Shown: piece by piece, positions 27,935 to 30,703 of the stretch
Position numbering within the stretch: the stretch's first letter is position 1
Layout of the letters: each line of letters begins with the position of its first letter
Origin: Flavobacteriales bacterium
Lineage (GTDB): Bacteria > Bacteroidota > Bacteroidia > Flavobacteriales_C > GCA-002722245
Reading direction: 5' to 3'
NCBI GenBank assembly: GCA_023251075.1
Contig: JAHEZM010000017.1
Coordinates: forward strand, 1 to 64,000
DNA: 64,000 nucleotides
Translations under genes and position numbers: made by a program
Notes under the pieces: generated by a model
The model's input: only the letters and a program-made list of their open reading frames with translations
Told to the model about the DNA's origin: nothing
Databases searched by the model: none

Positions 27935-27965
27935 AGTATACTTTTTAAATAATCTGTGTTTGGGG

Positions 27966-27973
27966 CAAATTTA
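27966..27973 (-). promoter_or_regulatory. Putative -7 element for fabV
   Basis: TAAATTTG on the minus strand fits the TAnnTTTG element and lies 32 bases before the fabV ATG. No TTG was found at the usual -33 distance, so support is partial. Confidence 0.35.
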
Positions 27974-28013
27974 TAAATAAAAAGTAGGGAATCATCATGT
28001 CATTTATACACAA

Positions 28014-28130
28014 CAAAAAAGACACATTAGGTGTATGTGTCTTTTTTTGTTTCGAGAGCTGTATATCTCCAGTGCTTCGTTTAAACTTTTTTTTGTGATT
28101 CTCAGCTCATCAAATATTTTTAGTTTCTGT
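28014..28130 (-). ncRNA. Candidate structured RNA unit A (with its own terminator)
   Basis: Read on the minus strand: a conserved lead AACTAAAAATATTT, then a stem GAGCTG/CAGCTC (28103-28108 with 28056-28061) and a short inner helix ATC/GAT, enclosing ACAAAAAAAAG and CGAAGCACTGGAGA. Seven bases later comes an intrinsic terminator, GACACAT/ATGTGTC with a T-run (28014-28048). Unit B just upstream has the same conserved loop while its stem bases differ and still pair. That is covariation, the usual mark of a conserved RNA fold. Not a known tRNA or riboswitch to my eye; a Flavo-1-type class is possible. Confidence 0.6.
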
Positions 28131-28208
28131 ATATAAGATGCTGAAAAGTTGAATAGGTTGCTTAATACTTTTAAAAATATATTTTTTGATAGCTACACAA
28201 TAAAATAT

Positions 28209-28320
28209 AAAACCCCTCTATGTTCGATAGAGGGGTTTTAAGCTTATGAGTCTGGGTCTCCAGTGCTTCGCAAATGCTTTTTTTTGTGACCCCTGACTCT
28301 TAAATGTTTTCAGTTTAGTA
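28209..28320 (-). ncRNA. Candidate structured RNA unit B (with its own terminator)
   Basis: Minus-strand reading: lead AAACTGAAAACATTT, then helix GAGTC/GACTC (28295-28299 with 28248-28252) stacked over GGGTC/GACCC (28288-28292 with 28254-28258), enclosing ACAAAAAAAAGC and CGAAGCACTGGAGA. Eight bases later is a strong 12-bp terminator (28209-28239, AAAACCCCTCTA/TAGAGGGGTTTT). It shares the loop but not the stem sequence with unit A. Having its own terminator argues for a short independent transcript. It starts just after the end of the PAP2 gene on the same strand, so it could also be processed from that message. Confidence 0.6.
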
Positions 28321-28340
28321 ATAAGACACAAAAAGAGTAA

Positions 28341-29012
28341 TTAGTTGCCTGAACGACGGAAAAAAATTGCTAAGGAATTGTTAAATATGGGGTGCTTAAG
28401 TAAAGTTTTCTGTTCGTAAATAAAGTAATAGAATAGTGTTGAAATACTTGTTCCTACTATAGATCCTGCAATAATATCTTTTAAAAAGTGTTGTGAAAGA
28501 TAGACTCTTGAAAAAGCGATAATTGTGGCTGCCAAAAAGCAAAGTAGTTTTAAATAGTTGTTTTTTACTAAAAAAGCCAGGCAAATGAAAATAGAGAAGG
28601 CTGAAGTGGTGTGGCCTGAAGGAAAGCTATTGAATTCTTGTATTACAACATCTTTAATTCTTCGGAATTCAGGGTGCTGGTGTAGAAAATGCACTGGTCG
28701 CAATTGTTCATCAAAAACTACTCTTTTCAGTATTTGAGTAATTCCGGCACTAATTCCATAAGATAAAGCAGTAAAAACAAAGGCTCTGTAATTGTAAAAA
28801 AGCAAAGCAATTAAAATGGGTATGGTAAACCATCCTTCGGCCATTTTAGTAATCCACACAAAAAGTATATCAGTAATTTGGCTATAGTAACTGGTTAGCC
28901 ATAAGTGAGAATTTAATTTATCAATAGTTAAAGCAAAATAAATTCCTATTGACAAAAATAAGAAATAGGGAACAAAGAAATATTTATGCTCTTTAATTAT
29001 TTTCAAAATCAT
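28341..29012 (-). CDS. PAP2-superfamily membrane phosphatase
   Basis: A 223-residue protein with six hydrophobic segments and the lipid-phosphatase signature in order: KRVVFDEQLRP (Lys-x6-Arg-Pro), FPSGHTTSAF and SRVYLSQHFLKDI. Such enzymes dephosphorylate undecaprenyl pyrophosphate or phosphatidic/lipid-A-type phosphates at the membrane. The ATG at 29012 is preferred over a TTG two codons upstream. The substrate cannot be told from the context. Confidence 0.88.
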   Translation of the reverse strand: MILKIIKEHKYFFVPYFLFLSIGIYFALTIDKLNSHLWLTSYYSQITDILFVWITKMAEGWFTIPILIALLFYNYRAFVFTALSYGISAGITQILKRVVFDEQLRPVHFLHQHPEFRRIKDVVIQEFNSFPSGHTTSAFSIFICLAFLVKNNYLKLLCFLAATIIAFSRVYLSQHFLKDIIAGSIVGTSISTLFYYFIYEQKTLLKHPIFNNSLAIFFRRSGN

Positions 29013-29051
29013 TCTCAATAATAAGAAGAAATAAGCAATGCTTAAAAAATC

Positions 29052-29827: not shown

Positions 29828-30703
29828 ATGATTTATTCAATAGAAAACGATTTCGCTAAAGCTTCTATCAATAGTTTTGGAGCTGAATTAAATAAGTATT
29901 ATAATAAAGATACCGGTGTTAGTTATTTGTGGAGTGGAGATAGTAAGCATTGGGGAAAATTTGCTCCGGTTCTTTTTCCTGTAATTGGAAAAGTGTACAA
30001 GGATAAGATTAAAGTAAATGGAGTAGATTACTTAATCACTAAGCATGGTTTTGCCCGGGATATGGAATTTACTTTAAAAAGTAAAAAGGAGGATAGTATA
30101 GAATTATTGATTAGCTCCAATGCTCATACCCGTTCAATGTATCCCTTTGATTTTGAATTTATAGTGAAGTATGAATTGAAAGAAGCAAAGCTAATAACCT
30201 CTTTCATTACTAAAAATACAGGTGATGAAAACATGTATTTCTCGGTAGGTGGGCATCCTGCGTTTGCTTGTCCGGTTAACAGTGTGGGTGATTACAGCGA
30301 TTTTTATCTTTCTTTTTCTCAGGAAGAAGATGCAGATAATGTTTTGTTGGTTCCATCCACTGGATTTAGAAGTGGTGAAGTACAAAAAAGTTATTTAAAG
30401 GGAAATAAAATTCCTTTAACTAAAACTTTATTTTTAAACGATGCTTTGGTGTTCTTTGGTTTGAAATCGCAGCAAATAACCATTCGATCTGATAAATATC
30501 CTCATCGTCTAGAATTTTCATTTGATGGTTTTCCGCAATTTGGTATATGGGCTCCGGTGGGTGCTCCTTTTGTTTGCTTAGAGCCGTGGCAAGGGGTGTG
30601 TGATGAAGAAGGTTATGAGGGTGAATTTAAAGATAGACTAGGCGTTTTAGAGCTTGCTCCAAATCATATTCATTTGTGCACTTATAGTATTGAAGGGAAA
30701 TAG
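29828..30703 (+). CDS. Aldose 1-epimerase (galactose mutarotase-like) family protein
   Basis: A 291-residue beta-sandwich protein of the aldose epimerase/LacX group. It shows YLWSGDSKHWGKFAPVLFPVIG near residues 33-54 (given here as YLWSGDSKHWG and PVLFPVIG), YLITKHGFARD, FSVGGHPAFACP with the catalytic His, and FVCLEPWQG with the catalytic Glu. Inference: interconverts sugar anomers in the cytoplasm; no signal peptide. The sugar is unknown. Confidence 0.85.
   Translation: MIYSIENDFAKASINSFGAELNKYYNKDTGVSYLWSGDSKHWGKFAPVLFPVIGKVYKDKIKVNGVDYLITKHGFARDMEFTLKSKKEDSIELLISSNAHTRSMYPFDFEFIVKYELKEAKLITSFITKNTGDENMYFSVGGHPAFACPVNSVGDYSDFYLSFSQEEDADNVLLVPSTGFRSGEVQKSYLKGNKIPLTKTLFLNDALVFFGLKSQQITIRSDKYPHRLEFSFDGFPQFGIWAPVGAPFVCLEPWQGVCDEEGYEGEFKDRLGVLELAPNHIHLCTYSIEGK

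What the first reader, a model, noticed from the sequence alone, without database searches (positions are those of the whole stretch)
28014..28320. Two tandem structured-RNA units with covarying stems, each with its own terminator
Seen on the minus strand: both units share the lead AACT(G)AAAA, and the loop ACAAAAAAAAG...CGAAGCACTGGAGA, but the closing helices differ (GAGCTG/CAGCTC versus GAGTC/GACTC + GGGTC/GACCC) and still pair. Compensatory change between two copies is direct evidence of selection on structure. An intrinsic terminator follows each within 8 bases. Inference: two small non-coding RNAs, perhaps of a Flavo-1-like class or something new.
Basis: seen in the sequence. Interest (0 to 1): 0.8.

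Follow-up and report, generated by a model that had tools for sequence, protein, structure and literature searches.

The report
ECF-sigma-driven small RNA pair
Two neighbouring copies of a previously undescribed small non-coding RNA, kept in the same shape in all five related freshwater bacteria examined, appear to be switched on by the kind of sigma factor that bacteria use to sense trouble at their cell surface.

Summary
Minus-strand units at 28316-28203 (u1) and 28130-28012 (u2) share an invariant core, CACAAAAAAAAG-[hairpin]-CGAAGCACTGGAG. Different helices close the core, and each unit ends in an intrinsic terminator. Covariance and pattern searches found one further copy in each of the four other genomes of the genus. 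They found none elsewhere: not in the sister genus, 385 other class genomes, a pattern scan of 84,980 species, or Rfam (including Flavo-1). In six sequences every drawn pair is a standard pair and seven pairs changed on both sides. The new point is the upstream block, GGCAAC-N16/17-GTCTTA. Genome-wide it lies just upstream of envelope genes: 13 of 16 matches precede an ORF, two are these RNAs, one is chance, whereas 9 of 9 control matches lie inside ORFs. It fits an ECF sigma promoter, like motif SM6 of Flavobacterium psychrophilum, whose regulon includes T9SS genes and an sRNA (Rfp11). A second site, a direct repeat about 60 bp upstream of the predicted start, occurs only at this RNA. In most copies the next gene downstream is convergent, which argues against a cis-leader. 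Best reading: a trans-acting sRNA of an ECF (envelope) regulon, working like MicA/RybB or FoxJ but in a genus without Hfq. Targets are unknown. It is a new family of a known kind.

The parts
28365..28384 (-). upstream element TTAACAATTCCTTAGCAATT (direct repeat TTARCA-N5-TTAGCA, 11-bp period), centred about 60 bp upstream of the predicted start; possible activator site; lies inside the 3' end of the PAP2 ORF
   Evidence: Perfectly spaced block in 5 of 6 copies. Zero-mismatch matches occur once per genome, only at this RNA; the best 1-mismatch hits read (tsf, a thiol-disulphide protein) lie in coding sequence.
28322..28349 (-). ECF-sigma type promoter of u1: -35 GGCAAC, N16, -10 GTCTTA
   Evidence: Conserved in 5 of 6 copies; the same pattern precedes envelope genes across the genus.
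28203..28316 (-). u1 small RNA, predicted transcript of about 114 nt (start about 28318-28313, end at the terminator U run)
   Evidence: Promoter and terminator positions; fold; covariation. Start inferred from the -10 spacing given in PMC10880074.
28248..28299 (-). u1 structured core: P1 GAGTC/GACTC, P2 GGGTC/GACCC, invariant internal loop with inner hairpin GC-ATTT-GC
28207..28240 (-). intrinsic terminator of u1 (AAAACCCCTCTAT-CGAAC-ATAGAGGGGTTTT)
28134..28163 (-). degenerate ECF-type promoter of u2: AAGCAAC, N17, ATCTTA; no copy of the upstream repeat element
28012..28130 (-). u2 small RNA, second copy, predicted transcript of about 119 nt
28056..28108 (-). u2 structured core: P1 GAGCTG/CAGCTC, P2 ATC/GAT, inner hairpin GT-TTAA-AC
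28012..28045 (-). intrinsic terminator of u2 (AAAAGACACAT-ACACCTA-ATGTGTCTTTTTT)
27966..27973 (-). sigma-A -7 box TAAATTTG of the downstream FabV gene; shows that FabV has its own promoter after the u2 terminator
   Evidence: TAnnTTTG consensus from PMC9723704 and PMC7366714.
26744..27934 (-). FabV-type trans-2-enoyl-CoA reductase gene (next gene, same strand)
   Evidence: Pfam PF12241, PF12242, PF07055.
28341..29018 (-). PAP2 phosphatase gene; its last codons overlap the -35 box and upstream element of u1
   Evidence: Pfam PF01569.
29828..30703 (+). aldose 1-epimerase gene; its orthologue lies divergently right beside the RNA in G002 and G003, giving positional orthology
   Evidence: Pfam PF01263.

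Best explanation
The two units are copies of one family of independent, trans-acting regulatory RNAs of about 115 nt. Each is transcribed from its own promoter by an extracytoplasmic-function (ECF) sigma factor and ends at its own intrinsic terminator. The single-stranded leader and the invariant internal loop (CACAAAAAAA / AAGCACUGGAG), held open by covarying helices, are the likely working parts. When the sigma factor is released by an envelope signal, the RNA is made together with lipoprotein, peptidase and secretion genes. By analogy with sigma-E sRNAs it then adjusts envelope or secreted-protein mRNAs by base pairing. Shown by sequence: structure, family, promoter pattern, shared regulon, terminators, trans arrangement. 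Inferred: ECF recognition itself, the start site, the regulatory role and base pairing. Unknown: targets and helper protein.
For: All drawn base pairs are standard pairs in all six sequences and seven pairs are changed on both sides. There is one copy in every other genome of the genus, E 1e-15 to 1e-18. The ungapped upstream block GGCAAC-N16/17-GTCTTA is shared with envelope genes: 13 of 16 genus matches sit just upstream of an ORF start, mostly lipoproteins and a PF10023 peptidase. Two more are these RNAs and one is chance; 9 of 9 reversed-pattern controls lie inside ORFs. In F. psychrophilum, promoters with a CGT -10 box (SM6) are attributed to ECF sigma factors and drive T9SS genes, an ECF/anti-sigma pair and the sRNA Rfp11 (PMC9723704). 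In an outside genome of the class (G138) a similar promoter precedes PorP/SprF directly behind an ECF sigma gene. Downstream genes are convergent in G001, G002, G003 and G004, so cis action is unlikely.
Against: No transcript data. An exact-complement search with the invariant loop found no shared mRNA target. Hfq is absent, so the standard sRNA pairing machinery is missing. Minimum-energy z-scores of single cores without terminators are modest (-3.0 to 0.0). The u2 promoter is degenerate, and the G001 copy lacks a clear U run after its terminator hairpin.
Confidence: 0.66

Rival explanations
1. A protein-binding or protein-titrating RNA (6S- or CsrB-like decoy): the invariant internal loop is bound by a regulator rather than pairing with mRNAs.
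For: The most conserved part is a closed internal loop with helices on both sides. No mRNA complement is conserved and there is no Hfq. It carries one GGA motif.
Against: Only one binding site per RNA and one or two copies per genome, unlike titrating RNAs with many sites. No candidate protein identified. CsrA is not known from Bacteroidota (own knowledge, not tested).
Confidence: 0.2
2. A cis-acting leader or attenuator (riboswitch-like) of the downstream gene.
For: In the window u2 lies upstream of FabV on the same strand and ends in a terminator.
Against: In the other four genomes the next gene is convergent or unrelated. FabV has its own sigma-A -7 box after the u2 terminator. u1 is followed by u2, not by a gene.
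Confidence: 0.05
3. The units are driven by the housekeeping sigma-A factor (a TAnnTTTG-like box directly before P1), and the GGCAAC block is something else.
For: Four copies have ATTTG or ATTTA just before P1.
Against: No copy has the leading T of TAnnTTTG, and G002 and G003 read ATTGG. A start there would fall inside P1. The GGCAAC-GTCTTA block is rigidly spaced and recurs before other genes at the distance expected of a promoter.
Confidence: 0.08
4. A non-functional repeat or mobile palindrome whose copies persist by descent.
For: Low copy number and one tandem duplication.
Against: Conserved position beside aldose epimerase in three genomes, conserved promoter, compensatory changes, and no spread elsewhere.
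Confidence: 0.03

Closest known systems
Rfp11 of Flavobacterium psychrophilum (PMC9723704)
   Same: An sRNA of Bacteroidota transcribed from a promoter with the ECF-type CGT -10 box (SM6), structured and conserved across related species.
   Different: Its sequence could not be compared (not in the main text; supplements not readable). Model R2 found no copy of the present RNA in 385 genomes of the class outside this family, so homology is unproven.
MicA / RybB / MicL (sigma-E sRNAs of enterobacteria; PMC1804206)
   Same: Short independent sRNAs with own ECF promoter and intrinsic terminator, in a regulon of envelope genes; trans-encoded.
   Different: No sequence relation found in Rfam, no Hfq in the genome, targets unknown, larger invariant internal loop.
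FoxJ of Fusobacterium nucleatum (PMC11005410)
   Same: Sigma-E-dependent sRNA in a bacterium that lacks Hfq and ProQ.
   Different: Sequence not compared here; FoxJ was shown experimentally to act on mRNAs.
Flavo-1 RNA (Rfam)
   Same: Only that it is a Bacteroidota RNA of unknown function (own knowledge).
   Different: No match of this locus at E up to 10.
Qrr sRNAs of Vibrio
   Same: Small number of near-copies with own promoters, upstream activator sites and a conserved inner pairing region (own knowledge).
   Different: Sigma-54 and LuxO rather than ECF; Hfq-dependent.

Membership tests
ECF-sigma (sigma-E type) dependent sRNA | Own promoter of ECF type (GCAAC-like -35, CGTC-like -10, spacer 15-17) | tested here: met
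   GGCAAC-N16/17-GTCTTA at 5 of 6 copies, shared with envelope genes; reversed-pattern control clean. By sequence only.
ECF-sigma (sigma-E type) dependent sRNA | Intrinsic terminator and no downstream gene under its control | tested here: met
   Clear terminator in 5 of 6 copies, hairpin without U run in G001; convergent next gene in four genomes.
ECF-sigma (sigma-E type) dependent sRNA | Base pairs with envelope protein mRNAs | tested here: inconclusive
   Exact complement of the invariant 11-mer gave no shared target; gapped or G-U pairing not tested.
ECF-sigma (sigma-E type) dependent sRNA | Transcript shown to depend on the sigma factor | not testable with these tools
   Needs RNA-seq or a reporter in a sigma mutant.
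MicA/RybB family | Sequence membership in an Rfam family | tested here: not met
   No Rfam match at gathering score; no MicA or RybB match at E up to 10.
MicA/RybB family | Hfq dependence | tested here: not met
   No Hfq (PF17209) in 8 genomes of the family, while 5 of 14 control genomes were positive.
Flavo-1 RNA (Rfam) | Match to the Flavo-1 covariance model | tested here: not met
   Not listed among matches at E up to 10 for 27950-28400.
Rfp11 of F. psychrophilum | Sequence and structure homology | not testable with these tools
   Rfp11 sequence is not in the main text, supplements could not be read, and named genomes could not be selected.
Riboswitch / cis leader | Conserved downstream gene on the same strand | tested here: not met
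   FabV in G000, RNase Z (convergent) in G001, a convergent ATP-binding enzyme gene in G002 and G003, a convergent secreted-protein gene in G004.

The most novel reading that the evidence does not exclude
This genus of Bacteroidota has an envelope-stress circuit in which one ECF sigma factor drives both envelope genes and at least two unrelated sRNAs: the family described here and a second, PF10023-linked RNA. They would act without Hfq, and the first would be gated by an extra activator at about -60. That would be a phylum-specific counterpart of the sigma-E/MicA/RybB arm.
Probability: 0.4. Interest if true: 0.62.

Novelty: new member of a known kind. Interest (0 to 1): 0.5.

Why it matters
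Very few sRNAs of Bacteroidota have been tied to a regulon, and the helper proteins for sRNAs in this Hfq-poor phylum are an open question. The finding gives a compact, conserved RNA whose sigma-factor control can be tested directly. It also gives a promoter pattern that lists the rest of the regulon in lake and groundwater Bacteroidota.

Tried and rejected
(1) Sigma-A promoter directly before P1: an early reading of mine, dropped once the GGCAAC-GTCTTA block was seen before other genes. (2) Pho-box idea for the TTAACA-N5-TTAGCA repeat: no second gene shares it at zero mismatches, and the best 1-mismatch hits inspected lie in tsf and a thiol-disulphide gene; left as an unnamed activator site. 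(3) Weak CM hits L039, L040, L042 (inside a capsule-export-type gene, an aldo/keto reductase and gldM) are chance. (4) Apart from the genus members, the 67 pattern hits in the 84,980-species collection do not continue the P2/P1 pairing with a promoter or terminator and look like chance. (5) mRNA target by exact complement of AAGCACUGGAG: only scattered coding hits, none shared. (6) Viral contigs: no match.

Full report
Observation. The minus strand of 28014-28320 carries two units with the features described. Unit u1 reads GAGTC-AG-GGGTC-A-CA-AAAAAAA-GC-ATTT-GC-GAAGCAC-TG-GA-GACCC-A-GACTC. Unit u2 reads GAGCTG-AGA-ATC-A-CA-AAAAAAA-GT-TTAA-AC-GAAGCAC-TG-GA-GAT-ATA-CAGCTC. Each is followed after 7-9 nt by an intrinsic terminator. 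The shared 14-mer is found nowhere else in the window or genome, and both units fold better than shuffles.

Homologues. A model of u1, u2 and one relative (R1) and a second model of six sequences (R2) were run over the genus, family, order and class. Each of the four other genomes of the genus holds exactly one copy (E 1e-15 to 1e-18 with R2) and the window genome holds two. The five genomes of the sister genus and 385 other genomes of the class hold none. A pattern scan of 84,980 species found only genus members as convincing copies: L083, L089, L092, L102. Their record titles point to uncultivated Bacteroidota assemblies, for example a Flavobacteriales bacterium and a Lac Pavin Bacteroidetes bacterium. 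There is no viral match and no Rfam match.

Structure. In a hand-made structural alignment every drawn pair is a standard pair in every sequence. Seven pairs show changes on both sides: P1 positions 3-6, P2 positions 3 and 4 (TA/CG, GC/AT), and inner hairpin position 2 (CG/TA). The register of P2 and of the hairpin is fixed by the invariant core, so those pairs do not depend on alignment choices. The register of P1 between the two subgroups (GAGYY and ACC) was chosen to fit, so I give it less weight. Folding energies of isolated cores are unremarkable for some members (z -3.0 to 0.0), so the case rests on covariation. The invariant parts are CACAAAAAAA on one side of the internal loop and AAGCACUGGAG on the other.

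Promoter. Alignment A4 shows a rigid block upstream of five of the six copies: WTAACAAWTCNTTARNAATT, 15 nt, AGGCAAC, 16-17 nt, GTCTTA or close to it. Weak CM hits in other genomes matched only this promoter part. A search for GGCAAC-N15-18-GTCTTA in the five genus genomes gave 16 sites. Thirteen lie just upstream of an ORF start: eight lipoprotein-like genes, most with a start codon about 5-60 nt downstream, and five copies of a PF10023 peptidase locus. Two are the RNAs and one lies inside coding sequence. All nine sites of the reversed control pattern lie inside ORFs. In G138, outside this family, a similar promoter lies between an ECF sigma/putative anti-sigma pair and a PorP/SprF gene. In F. 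psychrophilum the experimentally mapped SM6 promoters have a CGT box at -10, are assigned to ECF sigma factors, and drive T9SS genes, an ECF/anti-sigma pair and the sRNA Rfp11 (PMC9723704). The 16-17 nt spacer also fits the 15-17 nt used for ECF promoters in PMC10880074. I therefore read the block as an ECF promoter with a start 3-6 nt after GTCTTA, so the AAACnnAAAACATTTG lead is the transcribed 5' end. That a sigma factor really binds there is inferred. u2 has a decayed version (AAGCAAC-N17-ATCTTA) and lacks the upstream repeat, so it may be weaker or differently controlled.

Extra upstream site. The direct repeat is found at zero mismatches once per genome, only at this RNA, and is missing from the other promoters of the set. 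Its centre near -60 would suit an activator. The activator is unknown.

Context. In G002 and G003 the RNA lies divergently beside aldose epimerase. In the window the same epimerase (150 of 291 positions identical) lies 1.5 kb away, with PAP2 and a porin-like gene between, which supports descent from one locus. In G001-G004 the next gene downstream of the RNA is convergent, and FabV in the window has its own sigma-A box. A cis-leader role is therefore unlikely.

Mechanism. The best-supported reading is an independent trans-acting sRNA of an ECF envelope regulon. Hfq is absent, as in F. nucleatum, whose sigma-E sRNA FoxJ works in a bacterium that lacks Hfq and ProQ (PMC11005410). Target pairing is inferred by analogy with MicA and RybB (PMC1804206). 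An exact complement search found no conserved target. A protein-binding decoy remains the main rival.

Verdict. Real, conserved within the genus, not in Rfam, and a new family of a known kind. The promoter assignment makes it testable and more interesting than an orphan structure.

Noticed in passing
G000:C17 about 103,560-103,712 minus strand (L151), with L159, L165, L158, L160 in the other four genus genomes: A second conserved RNA behind the same ECF-type promoter: about 40 nt leader (TAAGTAATCGTRYYTGTTC...AAATCCAGCTA), then a long terminator hairpin ACCCCTGCTATT...AATAGCAGGGGT with a C/T-rich loop (CCTCTTCTTCC), directly upstream of a PF10023 peptidase gene. It could be an independent sRNA or an attenuator. 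No Rfam match in the two loci searched.
   Followed up: partly
window 28341-28384: The 3' end of the PAP2 coding sequence (FNNSLAIFFRRSGN*) doubles as the conserved upstream promoter region of u1.
   Followed up: partly
L131 1501-1603 (genome G138): ECF sigma gene, putative anti-sigma gene, ECF-type promoter and PorP/SprF gene in a row, suggesting that the same promoter class runs T9SS-related genes outside this family.
   Followed up: partly
L136 1200-1608 minus strand (genome G138): Another AGGCAAC-CGTCTTAT promoter followed by roughly 320 nt without an obvious ORF before a hypothetical gene; possible long leader or sRNA.
   Followed up: no
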